From a virus: a stretch of DNA of 64,000 nt. The notes beneath the pieces were generated by a model. The model searched no databases. It saw only the letters and a program-made list of their open reading frames with translations, and was not told the DNA's origin. Positions within the stretch are counted from its first letter, which is position 1. The number at the start of each line of letters is the position of its first letter. The stretch is from the IMG/VR virus record IMGVR_UViG_3300035670_011573, positions 113,933 to 177,932 of that record; one strand, written 5' to 3'. Positions 1-38,572 of the stretch are shown here, piece by piece. The translations under genes and the position numbers were made by a program.

Positions 1-116
1 TGAGAATTAGAAGTAAGCATACCGTTAGATAAATAATATTGGTGATCAGGATGCTCTACTTCTAGATCATAAGTATCCATCATCCCAACTTCTTTTACTG
101 ATTTAATTTTAGCCAA
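1..116 (-). CDS. dnaE: DNA polymerase III alpha, C-terminal half: split-intein C-fragment plus start of C-extein (partial)
   Basis: Reading the minus strand from a TTG at 114-116, preceded by a perfect AGGAGG at 121-126, gives a 37-residue peptide with an intein C-terminal splicing domain. Block F is TYDLEVEHPDHQYYLSNG and block G is MLTSN, ending in the catalytic Asn. It is followed by Ser+1 and a codon beginning CA (His or Gln) before the window ends. The N-terminal partner is the gene at 4792-7446, whose extein stops at YGFNR; joining gives YGFNR-SH, the conserved DnaE motif FxxYGFNKSH. The fragment has its own ribosome binding site, so it is translated separately and would be joined by protein trans-splicing. 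The stop codon of the methyltransferase upstream lies next to this ribosome binding site, so translation may be coupled. The rest of the polymerase C-extein lies outside the window. Confidence 0.88.
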   Translation of the reverse strand, partial: MAKIKSVKEVGMMDTYDLEVEHPDHQYYLSNGMLTSNS

Positions 117-124
117 AAAACCTC

Positions 125-931
125 CTAGTTTGGTTCTGGTGTCCCATTTATTTCTAGATTCAGAAATTCATCCATCTCTTCTGAACTAGTACTGGGTCCA
201 AAAATTCTTTCGTTAGCTATTTTAATATACTTCTCTTCTTGTTCAATTAAGATAAAATCTCTATCTAAATTCTTGCAGGCTACACCCGTCGTTCCACTTC
301 CCGCGCAATTATCTAAAACTATTTCCCCAGGGTTGGTATAAGTCTTTATTAAATATTCAAATAAAGAAACCGGCTTCACCGTAGGATGAGAACCGCTAGT
401 ATCGGTATTAAATTTCTGCCAAGAAGACGGGACCCTTAATTCTGGAACTTCGACAATACCACGGCCTTTGAATTTTCTATAGTTTTCAGACCTGGTGTTA
501 TGATCTTTACGATATCGCTTTGTATGCTTCTTACCAGTGGCAGATGTTCTTTCCTGCATCTGCTTGTTATAAGTCCATTTTCCTCTTGAAAAAATTAGAA
601 CCTGCTCATGCTCTTTGAAAGGTTCTCTGACTGTATTTGCAAAATTACTTCCACGATTTTTAATCCAAATCCATTCGTGACGAAACATCTTTGGGTTAGA
701 CATAACTAAAGCACTAGAAAAAGGTTGGGAAGCAGTCAGGGCTATAACTGCATTAGGTTTTGTAATTCTTTTATATTGTTCCCAAAGTTTATCAAAAGGG
801 ATTACTGTATCCCATTTGTTTTGGGTAATTCCATAAGGTAAATCACAAAGAATCATATCTATGGAACCATCATCTATCTTCTTCATTACTTCTAAGCAAT
901 CACCCTGATATATCTTGTTTTTTTCTAGCAT
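125..931 (-). CDS. DNA methyltransferase (N6-adenine/N4-cytosine, N6_N4_Mtase family)
   Basis: This 268-residue protein has the catalytic motif IV as DLPYG (residues 30-34, preceded by IDMILC) and the SAM-binding motif I near the C-terminus as VLDNCAGSGTTG (about residues 207-218), followed by an acidic strand (FILIEQEEKY). That order, catalytic motif first, is the beta-class arrangement of N6_N4_Mtase (PF01555) enzymes, which transfer a methyl group to adenine N6 or cytosine N4 in DNA. The variable middle carries a basic KKHTKRYRKDHN stretch likely to contact DNA. No cognate restriction endonuclease is adjacent, so it is probably an orphan modification enzyme protecting phage DNA. It sits between the two halves of the fractured dnaE gene. 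Confidence 0.9.
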   Translation of the reverse strand: MLEKNKIYQGDCLEVMKKIDDGSIDMILCDLPYGITQNKWDTVIPFDKLWEQYKRITKPNAVIALTASQPFSSALVMSNPKMFRHEWIWIKNRGSNFANTVREPFKEHEQVLIFSRGKWTYNKQMQERTSATGKKHTKRYRKDHNTRSENYRKFKGRGIVEVPELRVPSSWQKFNTDTSGSHPTVKPVSLFEYLIKTYTNPGEIVLDNCAGSGTTGVACKNLDRDFILIEQEEKYIKIANERIFGPSTSSEEMDEFLNLEINGTPEPN

Positions 932-948
932 TTCAAAATCCCGTAGGT

Positions 949-969
949 TAGGTATAGCTAGTATACCTA
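949..969. promoter_or_regulatory. inverted repeat upstream of the methyltransferase gene
   Basis: Eight-base arms TAGGTATA and TATACCTA flank a GCTAG centre, 18-38 bases before the methyltransferase start. It could be an operator or an RNA hairpin in the leader. The half-site GTATACCTAGA recurs just upstream of the next gene (2308-2318). Function is inferred from position only. Confidence 0.35.
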
Positions 970-1050
970 GAGCAATCCTAATATTACTCTATTTTTAGAA
1001 CCAAGTTTGGAAAACTTAAACCAACTTCATTTATACTCAAAAATATATTT

Positions 1051-2304
1051 TTATTGAACTATTCTTAGCTTAGTTGTGCTGACGTTAGTTATTTCACAAT
1101 CTTGTTCTTCATCACCACGAGGTACCTGGCTTGATAATCCAGAAGCTAAAGTAATGTTGTGATTGCCATTAGCGTTAATAACATCAGCAACTATAGAACC
1201 ATAAAAAGAAGCATTGCCATTTGGGTAGACTGTTGATTCTGGTGCATAAATGGTTCCATTAAAAGTGCTAGAGCCATTTATTCTAACTACTCTTTCACCA
1301 ATAACCCTTATCTCAAAACACTCCGGATGATCTGCATTGCCAGTAACACCACCATTTAAATTTACATTACCATTAACATATAAAATGGTTGGACTAGTAC
1401 ATCCATCAGATGTGCCAGAAATATTAATCATTTCTCTTGCCGTTCTTTGCTCCAAATCACCATCAACATAATAAACTTCACCTTCTTGAAGTGTAGTGAC
1501 TATAGTTGTATTAGAACCCCTACCCACACGAACACCATTAGGTAGGGCATGATAACTTTCAGGATAATCCACTGGACTGATTGGAATTTCCATACCCATA
1601 GGTGTAGAGTCGCCTGTGAAGTTATAAGCAGAACCCCTAGAGTCTATGCAAGGGGTTCCTACATCATATTCACAATCTGGACCCATATGAATATCTATTC
1701 CGTTTTGTACATTAAGACTACCGCCCAAAGTTATCCCACCGGAGTTAGTACAAGCAGATGCGCCGGCAGTTACCTCATCTATTCTTAGATCAAAATTTCC
1801 ACTTAGTTCCAATTGAGAATTGGCAAAGATTAAGCAGGGCCAATCACCATCGTTAGTAGGGACACACTCTTCTTCTAAGGTAGCAACCTTACCAGCAATA
1901 GAAGTTGCATGAACATGGTAAGTATAGTATCCAAACATTCCACCAAATATAGATGGAATATTGGATTCTGTAGTTATTTTTACATAATCACCATTATCCA
2001 TATCTAAGATCCACTCACCACCTTGATTAAAGGTACCAATTTCAGTGGTAACATTTTCAGAGGTTATAGTGGCTCCATAGACGGTATGGCTTGTAGCAAT
2101 AGAGGTTGCTTCTTCAGATACAGTAGTAGTGTTATTACTACCATCATCTTCACTGCCAAGATAGGCGGCGGAAGAAATTGCGGAAGTATCTGCGGCAGTT
2201 TGCAACTGCGCCTTAGAATAAGTCATAAGACCATAATCTATGGAAAGCGCTGCAAATCCAATAAATATGGGAAGTGAAATACTAAAATAAGTAGCAGTAG
2301 ACAT
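1051..2304 (-). CDS. TadG/TadE-like protein with extracellular-type C-terminal domain
   Basis: The N-terminus (residues 5-50) has a single hydrophobic segment (FSISLPIFIGFAALSIDYG) followed by SKAQLQTAADTSAISSAA. This is the pattern of the Tad/TadG pseudopilin-like N-terminal domain (PF13400-type), in which AADxxALSAA follows the membrane helix. The remaining 350 residues are Gly/Asn/Thr-rich with strand-like repeats (ITLGGSLNVQNG, TFNGTIYAPESTVYPNGNASFYGS) and about ten cysteines, suggesting a beta-helical surface or periplasmic domain. In bacteria TadG-like proteins are membrane-anchored parts of Flp pilus assembly; in a phage the role is unknown, perhaps surface modification or a captured host gene. 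It has no Tad partners nearby and lies in the gap between the dnaE halves. Confidence 0.6.
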   Translation of the reverse strand: MSTATYFSISLPIFIGFAALSIDYGLMTYSKAQLQTAADTSAISSAAYLGSEDDGSNNTTTVSEEATSIATSHTVYGATITSENVTTEIGTFNQGGEWILDMDNGDYVKITTESNIPSIFGGMFGYYTYHVHATSIAGKVATLEEECVPTNDGDWPCLIFANSQLELSGNFDLRIDEVTAGASACTNSGGITLGGSLNVQNGIDIHMGPDCEYDVGTPCIDSRGSAYNFTGDSTPMGMEIPISPVDYPESYHALPNGVRVGRGSNTTIVTTLQEGEVYYVDGDLEQRTAREMINISGTSDGCTSPTILYVNGNVNLNGGVTGNADHPECFEIRVIGERVVRINGSSTFNGTIYAPESTVYPNGNASFYGSIVADVINANGNHNITLASGLSSQVPRGDEEQDCEITNVSTTKLRIVQ

Positions 2305-2324
2305 TTTGTATACCTAGAATTTGT

Positions 2325-2332
2325 TATTTATA
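2325..2332 (-). promoter_or_regulatory. T4-late-like TATAAATA promoter candidate
   Basis: The minus strand reads TATAAATA about 20 bases before the start of the TadG-like gene, a spacing suitable for a T4-type late promoter. Phage late sigma factors such as T4 gp55 recognise this octamer, and the window encodes a divergent sigma factor. A single octamer in an AT-rich genome can arise by chance. Confidence 0.3.
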
Positions 2333-2362
2333 GTTACAATAAATATTGAAAAATATTCTTTT

Positions 2363-3577
2363 TCAAGATTTAATCTCTGTTTTCTGGGCAACAGGGACTA
2401 TACACTCCTGTTCTAAAGGTAACCAATAAAATCCTGTTCTATTAATCCCCTTTAATCGTTGTTCCCTGCTAATTGCAGGCAACTGAAGGGCAATATTCTG
2501 GGATGCATTTAAATCCGAGTTTCCTGTGTATCCACAGGATCTGCATTTAAATAACAATCCTTTCCTATTCCCCTTACGAACCCAACCGCACTGGAAACAC
2601 CTTTGACTTGTGTAAGTAGGGCTAACCTTAATAATCTGGACACCAGCATCTTTAAGTTTAGAATCCAACTTTTCAAATAGTTCCCTGTAATTCCAATGAG
2701 AAAGGTTGCGGCTTGACTTTCTTCCCTTTCTCATATTTCTAATGTTCTCCCTTCTAACTACCTTTATATTCTGTATATTCAGTCTGTTTACAGACCAATT
2801 TATGTAGTTAGTACGGTGTGCTTCTGCTCTCCTAAATCCCTTGGAACCCTTTTTCTTCCTTGCTAATTTTTGACAAATAGCTTTGTAATTGTGACCATGG
2901 TTATCCTTGTCAACTACTTGACCATTTGAACAAGACAAAATAGAATTTTGCCCTATATCTATCCCTAGGGTTTCCCCAGATTCCCTTTCTCTAGGTTCCT
3001 CCAATTCAAAACCAAACGTTATGGAATCTTTTGATAACCTAACTCCTGCTTTTAGTGTTCCTGAGGCTAACATTTTATTGAAGTGCTTTGTTTTCTTAAA
3101 AGGTATCTTTATAGTTAGCTTATTACCAAGAGAAGATAGGGTTACCCAACCATCGAAGATGGTATCATTATCCAAGTCTATTTTAACAAACCTAGAATCT
3201 AACTCTGGTTTAATATCTCCAACTAAAGGCTTTGAAGCAATATTTTTGTTATAGATTTGCTGAATTTTTCTGGCTTTCTTAAACATACCTTGAGCATTGA
3301 ACTTATTTATTTGCCAAAGCCTTCGGCTTTGTTTAGCTTTAGTTCCACGGACAATAGCAGAAGCCTGTTTACCAGCAGCTTGCAATGCTCTTGCAGATAA
3401 CCAAGTTTGAATCTGGGAAGTTATTCTCTTATCAAGCAGGGCAGGAATTTTATCCATATCCCAAAGGGGATCTATGAAAAGGGTAGTAACCCTCTGGTAT
3501 TCTGCAATAAAAAGGGAAAGGTTTTCCATTTTAACCTTTCTGCAGAATTTGGTAGTTACTTTAGTTGACTTTACCAT
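2363..3577 (-). CDS. tnpB: TnpB (IS200/IS605-family RNA-guided nuclease)
   Basis: A complete 404-residue TnpB. The RuvC-like acidic triad is intact: D207 in LGIDIGQNS, E277 in VVRRENIRN and D355 in NSDLNASQNIA. The four-cysteine zinc ribbon is CFQC (327/330) and CRSC (345/348). TnpB proteins cut DNA guided by an omega RNA transcribed from the 3' end of the gene and the element right end. No TnpA transposase is present, so this is a stand-alone tnpB. The 3' end is only 58 bases from the TadG-like gene, so any omega RNA must overlap the tnpB 3' end. A later start at 3529 has a better ribosome binding site (AAGG) than the ATG at 3577. It lies between the two dnaE halves. Confidence 0.93.
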   Translation of the reverse strand: MVKSTKVTTKFCRKVKMENLSLFIAEYQRVTTLFIDPLWDMDKIPALLDKRITSQIQTWLSARALQAAGKQASAIVRGTKAKQSRRLWQINKFNAQGMFKKARKIQQIYNKNIASKPLVGDIKPELDSRFVKIDLDNDTIFDGWVTLSSLGNKLTIKIPFKKTKHFNKMLASGTLKAGVRLSKDSITFGFELEEPRERESGETLGIDIGQNSILSCSNGQVVDKDNHGHNYKAICQKLARKKKGSKGFRRAEAHRTNYINWSVNRLNIQNIKVVRRENIRNMRKGRKSSRNLSHWNYRELFEKLDSKLKDAGVQIIKVSPTYTSQRCFQCGWVRKGNRKGLLFKCRSCGYTGNSDLNASQNIALQLPAISREQRLKGINRTGFYWLPLEQECIVPVAQKTEIKS

Positions 3578-3636
3578 GATTTATATAGAAATATTACTAT
3601 AATTTTAAATTTATTTTAATAAATAATATAAAGGAA

Positions 3637-4095
3637 TCAAATACATTCTTCAGAGCAGAAGTTACCCTCTTCACCACATACTATAAAAGTATTAGGAATT
3701 ACACCTTTACATTTATAAGTCTTCATTTTTTTAGTCCATTCCTCTTTGGTTTGGCATTCTTCTAAGGAAATTAATAAAGCCTCCACTTCGTTGGTTTCTT
3801 TTAAAATAAAAGTCATCCAGCCTTGGAAGTTACCAACCCGCCAAACATTTGCACCGAAATGGTAAGCATACAAATCTTCTTTTTGAAAGTGTTCCCTATT
3901 TAATTTTATTAAGCCACCTAATGTAGCATGGTCACTGAAGTCTGGAATGGCACCATCCGGTGGCAACAAGCCTTCATCATTAATCCTACCACAAATATTT
4001 ATATCAAGTGGAAAAAACCAACGCATACCTGGCAACCACTTCCAATTCTTACAGATTAAAGTTTTGAGTCCTAAATCTATTTTGTCTTGCAGCAT
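3637..4095 (-). CDS. hypothetical protein, Trp- and Cys-rich
   Basis: A 152-residue protein with no recognised family. It is rich in tryptophan (WKWLPGMRWFFPLD near the N-terminus, also WRVGNFQGW) and has a cysteine cluster at the C-terminus (CGEEGNFCSEEC). It has no membrane segment or signal peptide. It sits in a run of small minus-strand genes between tnpB and the dnaE N-half. Coding is supported by length, codon continuity and position in the tightly packed strand. Confidence 0.6.
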   Translation of the reverse strand: MLQDKIDLGLKTLICKNWKWLPGMRWFFPLDINICGRINDEGLLPPDGAIPDFSDHATLGGLIKLNREHFQKEDLYAYHFGANVWRVGNFQGWMTFILKETNEVEALLISLEECQTKEEWTKKMKTYKCKGVIPNTFIVCGEEGNFCSEECI

Positions 4096-4121
4096 GTTAT
4101 TTATCTTTTGTCCAAATTATT

Positions 4122-4442
4122 TTAGTTACTATCTAATGCTGCTCTAACTGCTGCATCTTTAGATTCTAGCAATTTTCTAAGTGCAACTTCTGTTTCAGGG
4201 CTATAAGGCGCTCGTCTAGCAACTTGTTCGGCCAACTCAGCAAATGGTCTTGAAACCTCTTGTAACTTTGGTGGTAAATGATCAAATTTGAAATATTTTA
4301 AAGTTGGTGATAATTGGTATTGACTATAAACAACCAAATCATTTAAAGTCGGTACTGGCATAGAAACCATAACCTCACCAGAACGAACCTTGGCACATCC
4401 ATTTGCCATACAATCTGGATTTGCACAACAGCATGTAATCAT
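4122..4442 (-). CDS. Acb2/Tad1-hairpin-like small protein (candidate cyclic-nucleotide sponge)
   Basis: The 106-residue protein begins with a cysteine cluster (CCCANPDCMANGC). It continues with a region resembling a widespread phage family: KFDHLPPKLQEVSRPFAELA followed by a second helix ending ALRKLLESKDAAVRAAL. The two-helix layout (HLPP...FxxLA...P...ALxxLLExKDxxVR) resembles the Acb2/Tad1 hairpin fold. Acb2 proteins block CBASS anti-phage defence by sequestering cyclic di- and tri-nucleotides. The family resemblance is from memory of the motif, not from a search, and many homologues have no tested function. The Cys-rich extension is an oddity. Confidence 0.45.
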   Translation of the reverse strand: MITCCCANPDCMANGCAKVRSGEVMVSMPVPTLNDLVVYSQYQLSPTLKYFKFDHLPPKLQEVSRPFAELAEQVARRAPYSPETEVALRKLLESKDAAVRAALDSN

Positions 4443-4487
4443 ATAAACTCCTCCCTTTAAATTGTTTTACAAATTAAACTAAGATTT

Positions 4488-4784
4488 TCATCCATAATGT
4501 TCGCTATTTTTAATTGCTGTAATTATATCTTCATAAGCAGCAGCGCACAGCGGAATGTCAGCAGATTCCATTCTTTTGTTGAGAAATTCTAAGATTAATT
4601 TTCTCTCTCGCATTTCTCCCAAAACCTCACTGGCTTCTGGTGGTGGCCAAGACGATCTTGCTTCATAATCCTGAATTATATTATCTGCTTTGCTTACTAG
4701 TTGCCAGACCCATTCTGCTGCAAACTCTTTATCCTCCAGCCTAAGAAAAAACTCCTCAATAAAATCATCTTTTGTGTACAGCAT
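4488..4784 (-). CDS. hypothetical acidic helical protein
   Basis: Starting at the ATG at 4784, which follows GAGGGTGTT, gives 98 residues beginning MLYTKDDFIEEFF. An upstream in-frame start at 4805 would overlap the dnaE N-half more deeply and lacks a better ribosome binding site. The protein is predicted helical and acidic, with a mid-protein SSWPPPEASEVLGEM segment reminiscent of linker plus helix. No family is recognised. It follows the dnaE N-half with overlapping reading frames near its stop. Confidence 0.6.
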   Translation of the reverse strand: MLYTKDDFIEEFFLRLEDKEFAAEWVWQLVSKADNIIQDYEARSSWPPPEASEVLGEMRERKLILEFLNKRMESADIPLCAAAYEDIITAIKNSEHYG

Positions 4785-4791
4785 AACACCC

Positions 4792-7446
4792 TCACTTATT
4801 AACAACTATTTCTAATTTATCTTCTAAAATTTTCCAGAGCGGCAACATTTCGCCTGTATTAGTTCTAAATTTATGATTGATTGTACAAACTGTTTTTGAG
4901 CCATCGTCTAATTCTACTTCAAATACTTTTAATTTTCCGTGATAATGATTATCCTTGACAGGGATCATAATATCTTGTCCCGTTTCTTCATTTCTGCTAC
5001 GAACCCAACAGCCTGGTTCAACATTTCTGATTGGAATATCTTTCCACTCTCTAGCATCAGAATCTCTGTATACCCGGATTAATTCATCAAACTTCAAGGA
5101 GCGATTAAAGCCATATAATCCGAATGGTTCGATTTGCTCATCCCAAATTCTTTTGGCTTCTTCATATTTCATACCAGATACTTTCATGCAGTCAGCAATA
5201 AAGTTAGCCTCTGTTTTTAAAACTAGATCTGGATCTTTACCTTTTAATTTTGTAATTTTCCTTAGTGCATCTGCTTGGTTAAGATCCCAACCTGCACAAT
5301 CCTTGGCAATGGTCATCATGCCTTCTTCATAAAGAGAAACACCATAAGTCTTCTTTAATGAATTTTCCATTTTAGGATGGATGTATTCGATTTCTTCTAC
5401 TCCAAGTTTTCTGTTGATATAATCGTTCCTCTGTTCTGGTGAACAAGAAGGTCTGCCTAGTGCATTAATGTCAGAAATTTCTTCAATATTTTTTGGCTTA
5501 ATCTTCATACAAAGTGGGGTAAGTGATGACTCCAATTGAAAGACGCCGGCAGTTTCACCACGTCCAATCATTTTAAAAGTTTCTGTATCACCTAAGGGAA
5601 TATCTTCAATAGTTATTTTTTTACTTTTGGTTTCTTGAATTATATTAAAGGTATCAGTAATTACGTTTAATGTATTTAGACCAAGAAGATCCATTTTAAC
5701 TAGACCGAAATCTTCGCACCTAGTTTTCTCCCATTGGGTAACCACCAAGCCGGTTTCTGCATCAATTCTAAGGGGGACAATCTCGTATAGTGGACGATCA
5801 CTAATTACAACCCCAGCGGCATGAACACTCCAATTCCTTGTCAGTCCTTGAAGCTTGCAGGCATTTTCATATAGTTCTGGATATTTCTTCATATATGAAG
5901 CAAACTCTTTACTTTCTTTCATTGCCTGTTCTACTGTCTCTGTATCTGGCATGATAGAAGTTAAATGATTTGCAATTTTAAAGGCTTCTGATTTATCACC
6001 ACCTAGCTCTAGACTTCTAGCTACGTCTTTAATAATCACCTTTGGTGACAGTGTAGACCAATTGCTGATGGAAGCGACTTTATCTTCCCCATATTTTTCT
6101 TTCAGATATTCTTTCACCTTGGCCGGGTCTGCGAAGTCTGAGTCAATATCTGGAAAGCTTTTCTTTTCTTTATTCTGAAATCTTTCAAACAGGAGGTCGT
6201 ACTTAATGGGGTCAACTGTAGTGATGCCAGTTAAAAATGCAACAATAGAGCCGGCACAACTTCCTCTTGCAGGCGAGCAAGGCATTCCTTGTGACTTAGC
6301 CCAATTTACGAAGTCTGCCACAATAAGCATATAAGAAGAAAAGTTTTTCTCTTCCATTACACTTAATTCTTTTTTAACCCTATCCCAGTATTCTTTCTTC
6401 TGTTCATCTTCTAGATGGCCTAATTTTTCTTTAAATCCGGCCATACATTTATATCTCAAATAGGACTTATCTTCTTCTATATCAGGACAAACCTTGGAAG
6501 ACCAACCCTTAAATTTTTGATATTCGTTTTCTTTTTGAACTGGAAACTTAGGAAGAATCGCACCCTTTGGTTCAATATAGGTAGGATTATCACAGGCGTT
6601 TAAAATCTTGATAGAATTCTCCATGCCTTTCTTGGCAACATCTGGACCAAAGAAGGATGTAATTTCTTCATATGTTTTAAGGTACATATCTTGCACGCCA
6701 TAACGAAATCTATCAGGATCGTTGATTGGCTTTTTGTCTTTAATAGCTAACATAAAATCGTGATACTTGGCATGGTCTTTATCTCGATAGTGGGCATCAC
6801 AAGTAATAACATAGGGGATGCTCTTATCATGCGATAGTCGAATCATTGCTTCATTTAGCTTTCTCTGGCTAACTTCCTTGCCAGTTTTGCCTGTAGCCTG
6901 GAGGTCATGTGGCTGGATTTCAAGAAAGAATCTATCTTTAAAAATAGCATTAAATCGATCAAGATAACAAAGAGCTTCTTGCTCATTTCCTTCTGTAATT
7001 AAAGTTTTGGCAATCAAACCATTAGAACAAGCGGTAAGGGCAATAACACCCTGGTTGAACTGCTCGATATGTTCCCAAGAAATTCTGGGCGTTTGTTTAC
7101 CCATATACCCAGAGACTTGGTTGCGGTAAGCCTCATAATTTAGTCGTAGAATATTTCGATAACCTACTTCATTTTGTGCAAGTAGAACAAGGTGATAATT
7201 CTTCTTATCAGATAGATCTGGTGCGAAGTACGCCTCCATACCTGGAATTAACTTAACGCCATGCTTCTTACTTGCTTTCCAAGCATCAAAAATAGCTGTC
7301 ATAGTACCATGATCTGTGACTGCTACGCCTGGATGATCTACTTCTTTAGCGCGAATAAAAAGGTCTTCCACATCATTCATACCATCCAAAGGTGAACCCA
7401 ATTCAGTATGGTTGTGCAAAGACACAAATGGTCCTGAAATACCCAT
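4792..7446 (-). CDS. dnaE: DNA polymerase III alpha, N-terminal half, with N-terminal split-intein fragment
   Basis: Residues 1-782 are a bacterial replicative polymerase alpha subunit. The PHP domain opens with FVSLHNHTELGSPLDG (7-22) and VTDHG (43-47). The nucleotide-binding loop ARGSCAGSIVAF lies at 393-404, and the catalytic palm motif SFPDIDSDF (430-438) carries the two metal-binding Asp residues. The extein stops at FGLYGFNR (about 775-782). The last 102 residues are an intein N-fragment starting SLKFDELIRV, with a block-B motif CTINHKF, then stop at 4792. The other half is at 1-116. The start follows TCTGGAGGAAAT. The insertion lies inside FNKSH, three residues after the cyanobacterial DnaE split site (EY|CFN). 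Active polymerase requires trans-splicing of the two products. Confidence 0.95.
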   Translation of the reverse strand: MGISGPFVSLHNHTELGSPLDGMNDVEDLFIRAKEVDHPGVAVTDHGTMTAIFDAWKASKKHGVKLIPGMEAYFAPDLSDKKNYHLVLLAQNEVGYRNILRLNYEAYRNQVSGYMGKQTPRISWEHIEQFNQGVIALTACSNGLIAKTLITEGNEQEALCYLDRFNAIFKDRFFLEIQPHDLQATGKTGKEVSQRKLNEAMIRLSHDKSIPYVITCDAHYRDKDHAKYHDFMLAIKDKKPINDPDRFRYGVQDMYLKTYEEITSFFGPDVAKKGMENSIKILNACDNPTYIEPKGAILPKFPVQKENEYQKFKGWSSKVCPDIEEDKSYLRYKCMAGFKEKLGHLEDEQKKEYWDRVKKELSVMEEKNFSSYMLIVADFVNWAKSQGMPCSPARGSCAGSIVAFLTGITTVDPIKYDLLFERFQNKEKKSFPDIDSDFADPAKVKEYLKEKYGEDKVASISNWSTLSPKVIIKDVARSLELGGDKSEAFKIANHLTSIMPDTETVEQAMKESKEFASYMKKYPELYENACKLQGLTRNWSVHAAGVVISDRPLYEIVPLRIDAETGLVVTQWEKTRCEDFGLVKMDLLGLNTLNVITDTFNIIQETKSKKITIEDIPLGDTETFKMIGRGETAGVFQLESSLTPLCMKIKPKNIEEISDINALGRPSCSPEQRNDYINRKLGVEEIEYIHPKMENSLKKTYGVSLYEEGMMTIAKDCAGWDLNQADALRKITKLKGKDPDLVLKTEANFIADCMKVSGMKYEEAKRIWDEQIEPFGLYGFNRSLKFDELIRVYRDSDAREWKDIPIRNVEPGCWVRSRNEETGQDIMIPVKDNHYHGKLKVFEVELDDGSKTVCTINHKFRTNTGEMLPLWKILEDKLEIVVNK

Positions 7447-35954: not shown

Positions 35955-36629
35955 TTATTTTTTGGTGCCATAAGCATGTGATTCATTTAGGCTAGACTGG
36001 GTAATGACAATGTAGGTATCAAACTTCTGTAACTCTGCAATGGTTCTGGTATTGGTATAAGACATGCCTGACTTAAGACCACCCACAAACCCATCATCAC
36101 CGTAGAGAACTTCTTTTAAGGATCCTACGTATGGAATATGGGTAGTTACACCTTCGGAACAAGTACCTTCTTTTAGGCCGCCACGAAGATCTTTTTGTAC
36201 TGATGCTGAGGCCATACCTCGATACATCTTTTTGGGAACTTCGTCAATATAAACTAAACTTGAGGGTGACTCATCTGTTCCAGCAAAAACGCCACCACAC
36301 ATAACAGCATCTGCCCCACCAATAATTGACTTAACAACGTCGGATGGATAACGGATTCCACCGTCTGCAATAATTGATGGATATTTCATGTTGGGATTAT
36401 TTTTATTATAATATTTGAATTTATGCCTTGCTCTAGCGCAATCGACCACAGAGGATAAAGTCGGGATTCCAACGGAGCTTTGGATGCGTGTTTTGCAGAT
36501 TGAGTTGTGTAAAAATACACCATTTGAAGAAAATGAGTGTGAATTTTCTACTGTGATATCATAGACCATTCCTGAAAAATGGAATCTCTTAATATTCGAC
36601 GGCTTGGAGAGTTTGTATTTCTTTAGCAT
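35955..36629 (-). CDS. guaB: IMP dehydrogenase, C-terminal half with split-intein C-fragment
   Basis: Residues 1-42 are an intein C-fragment: block F VYDITVENSHSFSSNG and block G VFLHN ending in Asn42. Ser+1 begins the extein at SICKTR, where C45 is the catalytic cysteine of IMP dehydrogenase. The remaining 182 residues continue the TIM barrel (SSVGIPTLSSV, IADGGIRYPSDVVKSI, GGLKSGMSYT), the GGLKSGM loop being typical of IMPDH rather than GMP reductase. The partner is at 37730-38572. Joined exteins give about 360 residues lacking CBS domains. The intein position is the known IMPDH split site (GGG|SICTT). The start follows AGGAGTTAAAAG. Confidence 0.95.
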   Translation of the reverse strand: MLKKYKLSKPSNIKRFHFSGMVYDITVENSHSFSSNGVFLHNSICKTRIQSSVGIPTLSSVVDCARARHKFKYYNKNNPNMKYPSIIADGGIRYPSDVVKSIIGGADAVMCGGVFAGTDESPSSLVYIDEVPKKMYRGMASASVQKDLRGGLKEGTCSEGVTTHIPYVGSLKEVLYGDDGFVGGLKSGMSYTNTRTIAELQKFDTYIVITQSSLNESHAYGTKK

Positions 36630-37665
36630 CTTTTAACTCCTGAATTATTTTCAGCAATACGTATGTTTTTTCATAATCTTTAGATTCTGACTCTCTAATT
36701 CTATAAATAACAAAGTTATGTTTTTTTGCTAATTCATCTTTGTAGGCATCATTATTTTTTATTTTTAAAATTTTATCCACTGATAATATCGGATGGTTAT
36801 CTTCTTCTGGGTGCCAAAAATCTCCATCAAATTCGACCAATATTTTATCAAATAAGCAGGCATCATAATAACGGTCACCCAGTCGATATGTTCTTTTTAT
36901 ATTGTTTGGACCAACAAAGTATGATAACATATCAAAATATTCTGTTTCTGGTTTTGAGGCAATTGAATCTTTGAAAATATCTGAGTAATCATTTACTGCA
37001 AACTCATTAATTCTTTTTTTCAATACCCACGAAGAGATGTTTAATTGATAAAGATCAATAATTTTTTGATATGAGGTTGTTTTTCCTTCAGACTTTATAT
37101 AGTCAAGATATTTTATAACGACATCCATTGTCTCCTCAGGGACTTTTATATAGCAACCATTTTTTTCTCCAAGGTTGGAATAAACTAACTGATGCTTTTT
37201 CGCATTTGAATCTATAGTTTTCTTAGATGCTATCTTTAATTTAATCCACCAATTCTTAATGGTTCTAAAGTCATGACCAGATATTTCTGATATCTTGTAT
37301 GCGGGATACTTTGGTGATTGGTATTTTTCCCAGTAATCTTCTAGCGATTCTTTTGTTAATCCAATTTTTGTATAATTATCCTTGAAAGTTTCTAATAATG
37401 ATTCTGAAATTTGCTTCTTTCTTTCTTTTGGAACTGCACAATATCTAACGTGATCTCCTACATATTTTAGATATTTTCCTTTTTCAAATTTAGTTTCATT
37501 TCCACAGCCACAACCACAAGTTGGTTTTACGTCATTATGTGTATATTTTAAAACGTAGCTTTCTAAAGTTATAGAGTGATCTTTTTTAAGATGAAATGAA
37601 AATTGAGCATATCTTCTTGAATCTTGATAATGAGAAAAATCCTTGTCACAAAGTAAGCATTTCAT
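36589..37665 (-). CDS. Vsr-like endonuclease between the IMP dehydrogenase halves
   Basis: The start at 37665 follows GGAGGGCTAGTCGC; an in-frame ATG at 37683 includes the ribosome binding site and is not used. The 358-residue protein has an N-terminal C2H2-like zinc finger (CLLCDKDF...HLKKDH) and a CGCGC zinc module. Helical linkers follow, then a C-terminal nuclease core: YYDACLFDKILVEFDGDFWH, then a helix with DAYKDELAKKHNFVIYRIRE. This matches the Vsr/EDxHD fold. Free-standing nucleases of this type between split-intein gene halves are known in phage fractured genes. Its 3' end overlaps the IMPDH C-half by 41 bases. It would act as a homing nuclease for the intein locus. Confidence 0.85.
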   Translation of the reverse strand: MKCLLCDKDFSHYQDSRRYAQFSFHLKKDHSITLESYVLKYTHNDVKPTCGCGCGNETKFEKGKYLKYVGDHVRYCAVPKERKKQISESLLETFKDNYTKIGLTKESLEDYWEKYQSPKYPAYKISEISGHDFRTIKNWWIKLKIASKKTIDSNAKKHQLVYSNLGEKNGCYIKVPEETMDVVIKYLDYIKSEGKTTSYQKIIDLYQLNISSWVLKKRINEFAVNDYSDIFKDSIASKPETEYFDMLSYFVGPNNIKRTYRLGDRYYDACLFDKILVEFDGDFWHPEEDNHPILSVDKILKIKNNDAYKDELAKKHNFVIYRIRESESKDYEKTYVLLKIIQELKDAKEIQTLQAVEY

Positions 37666-37729
37666 GCGACTAGCCCTCCGCATACTATGCTTTTGTATTA
37701 GCAGATTTGGCTAGAAAAATTAAAACATG

Positions 37730-38572
37730 TTATTCATCACCATGGCCCACCAACATGTGATTATCGTTAATTTCTCCTGCTGGAAGCCAAAATGCAAAAT
37801 TATGAATATTTTCATCTGTAAGCTTATCAATATCCTGCACATTAACAACGTAGTATTTGTGATCTGTTGTGGTTTCTATTCCGTTGATAGAAATAACTTC
37901 TTCATTTTTAAGAGAAGTAATTATATCAGTTACAGAATTCCATTCTCCAGAGTGGGTAAGAACTACATCTCCCAACTCAATTTCTGAAATGGGAATGTCA
38001 CCACGCTTCGTCAAAACGGTGGTTGTAGGCATTAAACAACCGCCTCCTATCCCTACCCGTACCGCATCGACACCTAATTCAATCATAAATTCATAGCCAT
38101 GAAAAGTAGCAATATTTCCTGCCATGATTGGTAGTCCTGGATAAGTTGCCTTTACCCAGTCTACCATTTCTTTCATTAGAATAGAGTGTCCATTAGCAAC
38201 ATCAATAGATACCATATGGATTGGAATTGCTGCTTCCATTAGAGTGGTGAGTCTTTTTCTTTCAACCTCTCCCACTCCGATTGCCGGCACTACCCATTGA
38301 TTTTCTTGGGCGACTTTTTGACATTCTTCTACTTGACGTTGAGGATCCATAAACCTATGGATAATGCCTAGACCTCCAAGCCTTCCTAATTCGATAGCCA
38401 TATTGGATTCTGTAACAGTATCCATAGGCGAAGAAATAAAAGGAATTTTTAGCTCTAGGGGTCCAACTTTTGTAGAGGTATCTGGTTCGGAACGAGAACG
38501 AATATCGGAATAAACTGGTGGGATAAGAATATCGTCAAAAGACAAACCTTTGATTCTTTTGTGTTCAATCAT
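37730..38572 (-). CDS. guaB: IMP dehydrogenase, N-terminal half with split-intein N-fragment
   Basis: Residues 1-178 are the IMP dehydrogenase N-terminal barrel half: LSFDDILIPPVYSDIRS and PFISSPMDTVTE, then VRVGIGGG. The intein starts at C179 (CLMPTTTVLTKRGDIPISE) and continues 102 residues with block-B TTDHKYYVV, matching the known IMPDH-1-type split intein pattern (DENIHNFAFW). No CBS (Bateman) domains are present between the barrel strands, unlike most bacterial IMPDH. The enzyme oxidises IMP to XMP, feeding GTP synthesis. Product requires trans-splicing with 35955-36629. The frame ends at 37730 without a C-extein. Confidence 0.95.
   Translation of the reverse strand: MIEHKRIKGLSFDDILIPPVYSDIRSRSEPDTSTKVGPLELKIPFISSPMDTVTESNMAIELGRLGGLGIIHRFMDPQRQVEECQKVAQENQWVVPAIGVGEVERKRLTTLMEAAIPIHMVSIDVANGHSILMKEMVDWVKATYPGLPIMAGNIATFHGYEFMIELGVDAVRVGIGGGCLMPTTTVLTKRGDIPISEIELGDVVLTHSGEWNSVTDIITSLKNEEVISINGIETTTDHKYYVVNVQDIDKLTDENIHNFAFWLPAGEINDNHMLVGHGDE

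What the first reader, a model, noticed from the sequence alone, without database searches (positions are those of the whole stretch)
1..7446. Fractured dnaE with a split intein at a site three residues from the cyanobacterial one
The N-half ends YGFNR then S(LKFDEL...) intein with block B; the C-half at 1-116 ends LTSN then S followed by CA. Joined, the extein reads YGFNR-S-(H/Q), matching DnaE. Known split DnaE inteins interrupt EY|CFN in the same motif, so this is a different insertion position. Six genes (about 4.7 kb) separate the halves on the same strand.
Basis: partly seen in the sequence, partly recalled or inferred. Interest (0 to 1): 0.85.

Follow-up and report, generated by a model that had tools for sequence, protein, structure and literature searches.

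The report
Phage DNA polymerase split by intein
A large phage encodes its only detected DNA-copying enzyme as two separate genes whose ends carry the two halves of a self-splicing protein (a split intein) that should join the pieces; about 45 other phage contigs share this break, but here the usual homing nuclease between the halves is gone and six unrelated genes sit in the gap.

Summary
DnaE is encoded in two pieces: an N-half (782 residues plus a 102-residue IntN) and a C-half (37-residue IntC plus 307 residues) that starts at window base 116 and continues beyond the window edge. Joined, they read YGFNR-SHSVSYS, as in uninterrupted relatives. The record has no second dnaE and no family A or B polymerase. 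Neighbouring genes are in the same order as in intein-free relatives, so 4.68 kb and six genes were inserted into a fixed locus. The site lies four residues, not three, from the cyanobacterial Y|CFNK site; one phage (L120) carries inteins at both. The split is not unique: 44 non-redundant loci carry this intein split at the same K/R|S site, most with an ExDGxxH homing-endonuclease gene in a gap of about 1 kb. Presence is patchy on the DnaE tree. In one pair the cassette is 88% identical while flanking dnaE is 76-79%, so it moves between phages. In the window lineage the endonuclease is absent, yet both intein halves remain under purifying selection (IntN dN/dS about 0.14), so trans-splicing is very probably still needed. 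This is a new variant of the known fractured-gene/split-intein arrangement; splicing itself is untested.

The parts
5101..7446 (-). DnaE N-extein (782 codons): PHP, polymerase and finger domains, ending EPFGLYGFNR
   Evidence: Pfam PHP, DNA_pol3_alpha E 5e-78, DNA_pol3_finger; junction matches uninterrupted relatives, e.g. L032 FGSYGFNKSHSVSYS
4792..5100 (-). IntN, 102 residues from Ser1 (SLKFDEL...CTINHKFRT...VVNK) plus stop codon
   Evidence: block-B-like T..H motif conserved in all aligned family members; matches Npu DnaE intein sequence; the family member L051 folds as an intein
6..116 (-). IntC, 37 residues (TTG start; ...TYDLEVEHPDHQYYLSNGMLTSN)
   Evidence: TSN ending in 49 of 51 sequences at this site
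1..5 (-). start of C-extein (Ser+1, then His); the rest lies outside the window down to G000:C1:113014
121..126 (-). AGGAGG Shine-Dalgarno-like sequence 4 nt before the C-half TTG start, overlapping the stop codon of the upstream methyltransferase gene
   Evidence: sequence
4488..4805 (-). gap gene 1, 105 aa, unknown; homologue in the L006 gap
   Evidence: no Pfam or PHROG match
4122..4442 (-). gap gene 2, 106 aa, phrog_1761 (unknown function); homologue in the L006 gap
3637..4095 (-). gap gene 3, 152 aa, unknown; homologue in the L006 gap
2363..3577 (-). gap gene 4, TnpB-like protein (Cas12f1-like TNB domain), absent from the L006 gap
   Evidence: PF07282 E 1.5e-19; no guide-like match at the dnaE site
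1051..2304 (-). gap gene 5, TadE/G-like pilus-type protein, 417 aa; homologue in the L006 gap
   Evidence: Tad, TadE, DUF7305
125..931 (-). gap gene 6, N6/N4 DNA methyltransferase, absent from the L006 gap
   Evidence: PF01555 E 2e-31

Best explanation
This is a fractured dnaE of a large phage. The two half-proteins are translated separately, IntN and IntC associate, and a class-1 split intein with Ser1 and Ser+1 excises itself and joins YGFNR to SHSVSYS, giving an intact DnaE of about 1,089 residues. The fracture descends from a mobile cassette (IntN, a free-standing ExDGxxH homing endonuclease gene, IntC) that homes into dnaE at the FN(K/R)|S codons in many phages. In the window lineage the endonuclease is absent, so the split is probably vertically inherited and no longer self-mobile. 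The gap between the halves, tolerated because joining happens at the protein level, has collected six ordinary genes. Shown by sequence: both halves, junctions, motifs, synteny, family, patchy distribution, lateral transfer in one pair, purifying selection. Inferred: splicing, homing activity, order of events.
For: Domains split exactly at the junction; sole DnaE and no family A/B polymerase in the record. Best solved relatives are DnaE split inteins (Npu 2keq E 1e-13; gp41-1 6e-6). AlphaFold model of the family's continuous member L051 matches inteins, NpuDnaE first. Conserved gene order around dnaE in relatives with and without the intein. dN/dS against L006: N-extein 0.03, IntN 0.14; IntC and C-extein have low dN with dS saturated. 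44 split loci plus cis L051; endonuclease family in the gap of most; at least 6 gains or losses on the DnaE tree; cassette 88% identical L028/L008 versus 76-79% in flanks, with L010 an empty site. Shine-Dalgarno-like AGGAGG before the C-half.
Against: No splicing or ligation experiment exists. The penultimate His is Ser in this family, though cyanobacterial DnaE inteins also have Ser or Ala there (PMC5874633). Ser1 is in principle a weaker nucleophile than Cys1 (own knowledge). The endonuclease could lie elsewhere: one search of the record found no homologue, and the record may be incomplete. The AlphaFold model is moderate (pLDDT 72) with the last 25 residues unreliable.
Confidence: 0.88

Rival explanations
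1. The halves work as a two-subunit polymerase without covalent joining; the intein pieces are remnants.
For: Some distant phage DnaEs (L036, L038) are split into two ORFs with an exonuclease-like gene between and no intein seen at the break.
Against: Both intein halves keep their catalytic motifs across the family (TSN in 49 of 51, T..H block in all aligned) and are under purifying selection. In L036/L038 the break is at a different place.
Confidence: 0.06
2. Decaying gene: dnaE was broken by insertion and the phage uses the host polymerase.
For: Gap genes accumulate; the endonuclease is absent.
Against: No stops; N-extein dN/dS 0.03 and low dN in the C-extein against L006; it is the only polymerase found in the record.
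Confidence: 0.03
3. Assembly chimera joined two loci.
For: The record is a metagenomic contig.
Against: L007 repeats it with one mismatch in 12.8 kb (it could share a sample); L006 shows the same arrangement at 92.6% N-extein identity with four shared gap genes; synteny outside the gap is intact.
Confidence: 0.01
4. TnpB in the gap has replaced the lost homing endonuclease and cuts empty dnaE sites with a guide RNA.
For: A TnpB-like gene sits inside the fracture with RuvC-like motifs visible by eye; no TnpA-like gene was noticed among the gap ORFs.
Against: No 16-base stretch near its 3' end matches joined dnaE at the insertion site; the best 14/16 hits are AT-rich and elsewhere. It is absent from the gap of the sister L006.
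Confidence: 0.02

Closest known systems
Cyanobacterial split DnaE inteins (Npu, Ssp)
   Same: Same host protein; similar size (102 + 36 residues for Npu; PMC11766414); nearest solved sequences; Ser or Ala as penultimate residue is known there (PMC5874633)
   Different: Insertion four residues downstream; separate clade in the tree, 98/90; Ser1/Ser+1 instead of Cys1/Cys+1; same-strand halves 4.7 kb apart in a phage
Fractured genes with split inteins and free-standing Vsr/EDxHD-type homing endonucleases (Dassa et al. 2009; paper not held, recalled)
   Same: Gene broken by a split intein with a separate endonuclease gene in the gap in most relatives; ExDGxxH motif and a PHROG 'homing endonuclease' match
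   Different: The window member has no endonuclease and carries six other genes; whether the 2009 set includes this DnaE site could not be checked
gp41-1, gp41-8, NrdJ-1, IMPDH-1 split inteins
   Same: Split inteins of metagenomic origin with Ser+1 (PMC11766414)
   Different: Those have Cys1 and other host genes. The window's second fractured gene (guaB) resembles IMPDH-1 (recalled, not tested)

Membership tests
Split intein (class 1) | two polypeptides each carrying part of the intein fused to part of one host protein | tested here: met
Split intein (class 1) | nucleophile Cys/Ser at position 1, Asn at the end, Cys/Ser/Thr at +1 | tested here: met
   Ser1, Asn, Ser+1
Split intein (class 1) | block B T..H motif; intein (HINT) fold | tested here: met
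   invariant T..H; fold of relative L051 matches inteins, not folded for the window protein itself
Split intein (class 1) | penultimate His (common, not strictly defining) | tested here: not met
   Ser in this family; Ser/Ala are recorded in cyanobacterial DnaE inteins (PMC5874633)
Split intein (class 1) | protein trans-splicing activity | not testable with these tools
   needs expression
Cyanobacterial DnaE split intein allele | insertion at Y|CFN | tested here: not met
   R|SHS, four residues downstream
Cyanobacterial DnaE split intein allele | common clade with Npu | tested here: not met
   separate sides of a 98/90 branch
Fractured gene with homing endonuclease | free-standing endonuclease gene between the halves | tested here: not met
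   met in most relatives, absent in the window and in L006
Fractured gene with homing endonuclease | cassette mobility | tested here: inconclusive
   supported by sequence for L028/L008 and by patchy distribution, not for the window copy

The most novel reading that the evidence does not exclude
Once the endonuclease is lost, the gap of a fractured essential gene becomes a protected landing place for accessory genes in phages: anything inserted there is tolerated because the halves rejoin as protein. The window (4.7 kb), L006 (3.5 kb) and the Y|C-site phages L115, L120, L123 (3.4-4.0 kb, virion-like genes in the gap) would be instances, and phages would be the reservoir of both DnaE intein sites including the cyanobacterial one.
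Probability: 0.3. Interest if true: 0.65.

Novelty: new variant of a known kind. Interest (0 to 1): 0.5.

Why it matters
It adds a phage family of split DnaE inteins with mostly Ser1/Ser+1 nucleophiles (a rare type, useful for labelling under oxidising conditions; PMC13014065) four residues from the textbook cyanobacterial site, with a natural series from empty site to occupied site to lost endonuclease to re-fused gene. It makes the history of split DnaE inteins directly testable in phages: the single cyanobacterial sequence used (Npu) falls among phage Y|C-site inteins.

Tried and rejected
TnpB guide against joined dnaE: no credible match. Missing endonuclease elsewhere in the record: none with L055's protein as query. 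Phage-isolate collection: only a distant continuous intein at the same site in a gut contig, L041. Bacterial/archaeal genomes: three hits, in metagenome-derived assemblies, probably phage contigs but not proven. T4-like late promoter TATAAATA: no excess in the window. A mixed N- and C-fragment alignment (A3) was misaligned and not used. Dassa 2009 not held; no paper found describing this site. The viral fold-library search was started but not collected.

Full report
Setting. The window is bases 113,933-177,932 of a 177,932-base virus record. The C-half of dnaE begins at window 116 and ends outside it, so the region G000:C1:104000-121500 was fetched as L002.

Observation. The N-half (window 7446-4792, -) holds PHP, polymerase and finger domains and ends EPFGLYGFNR|SLKFDEL...VVNK; the C-half (L002 10049-9015, -) begins with IntC ending NGMLTSN|SHSVSYSHISYY and continues with HHH_6 and a weak OB-fold match. 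IntN is 102 and IntC 37 residues. Only one DnaE and no family A or B polymerase was found in the record. A separate record, L007, is the same over 12,774 bp with one mismatch; it might come from the same sample.

Locus. Genes upstream of the N-half and downstream of the C-half keep their order in relatives with and without the intein, through 176-aa, 97-aa, 195-aa, SSB-like, RuvC-like, GroEL-like and RecA-like genes (these names are mine, from the translations). The halves are therefore in place and 4.68 kb was put between them. The C-half has AGGAGG four bases before its TTG start, overlapping the methyltransferase stop.

Gap genes. Three small proteins (one matches phrog_1761, the others nothing), a TnpB-like protein, a TadE/G-like protein and an N6/N4 methyltransferase. 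In L006 (N-extein 92.6% identical) homologues of four of these lie in its 3.5 kb gap; TnpB and the methyltransferase do not.

Family. Scans with the DnaE halves and with the intein alignment A2 gave loci with uninterrupted dnaE and many with the same split intein. After removing duplicates, 44 split rows and one continuous row (L051) of this family were used, plus three more distant split rows at the same site (L098, L099, L101). Gaps: 36 bp continuous in L051; 47-462 bp without an intact endonuclease in about ten; about 850-1,430 bp with one endonuclease family in most; 1,987 bp in L088; 3,529 in L006; 4,681 in the window, the longest. The endonuclease family carries an ExDGxxH motif in most members and has PHROG homing-endonuclease and weak DUF559 matches. 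Position 1 is Ser in 31, Cys in 10, Thr in 3; TSN ends 49 of 51 sequences.

Mobility. On the DnaE tree presence of the intein needs 7 changes, at least 6 forced by well-supported branches. L028 and L008 share a 1,400-bp cassette 88% identical while the 960-bp flanks are 79% and 76% identical; L010 is a close relative with an empty site. This is the pattern expected of homing; nuclease activity is untested. L051 (continuous) lies beside split L057 within the split clade, which suggests re-fusion.

Function. Between window and L006, dN/dS is 0.03 for the N-extein and 0.14 for IntN; for IntC and C-extein dS is saturated and dN is 0.15 and 0.14. Fold: the continuous relative L051, modelled at pLDDT 72, matches NpuDnaE first and inteins generally. 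The sequence search of solved structures also gives DnaE inteins first.

Relation to the cyanobacterial site. A further scan found phage dnaE with inteins at Y|C (L111/L119, L115/L124/L132, L120-L123; others with IntN only seen). L111 IntN with its flank is 60% identical to Npu. L120 has a Y|C split intein and, after CFNK, a continuous intein at K|S with an HNH-like segment. In the tree the two site groups are separate (98/90), with Npu among the phage Y|C rows. The gp41-1, gp41-8 and NrdJ-1 sequences were also from memory.

Judgement. The finding is real and the reading largely right, but it belongs to a known arrangement. What is new, as far as I could check, is the phage DnaE family at this site, its mostly Ser/Ser chemistry, and the endonuclease-free, gene-filled gap.

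Noticed in passing
window 35955-38572: Second fractured gene: guaB (IMPDH) in two ORFs with a split intein (GGG|CLMP... FLHN|SICK) and a 364-aa ORF with EFDGDFWH between, resembling the known IMPDH-1 split intein.
   Followed up: partly
G000:C1:95694-96692 (L003): Continuous intein in what looks like the large terminase gene, inserted at a FYDE motif.
   Followed up: no
L120:3412-11899: Phage dnaE with a Y|C split intein and, four residues later, a continuous K|S-site intein with an HNH-like segment.
   Followed up: partly
L028:6416-12560: DnaE in three pieces with two split inteins (PARG|C...HN|SSAGS and FNK|S) and one ORF in each gap (323 and 360 aa).
   Followed up: partly
L115, L120, L123: Y|C-site fractured dnaE with 3.4-4.0 kb gaps holding virion-like genes.
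   Followed up: partly
L036:6076-10414, L038: DnaE in two ORFs with an exonuclease-like gene between and no intein seen.
   Followed up: no
window 1051-2304: TadE/G pilus-like protein in a phage.
   Followed up: no
L067, L087, L091: Family members with Thr at intein position 1.
   Followed up: no
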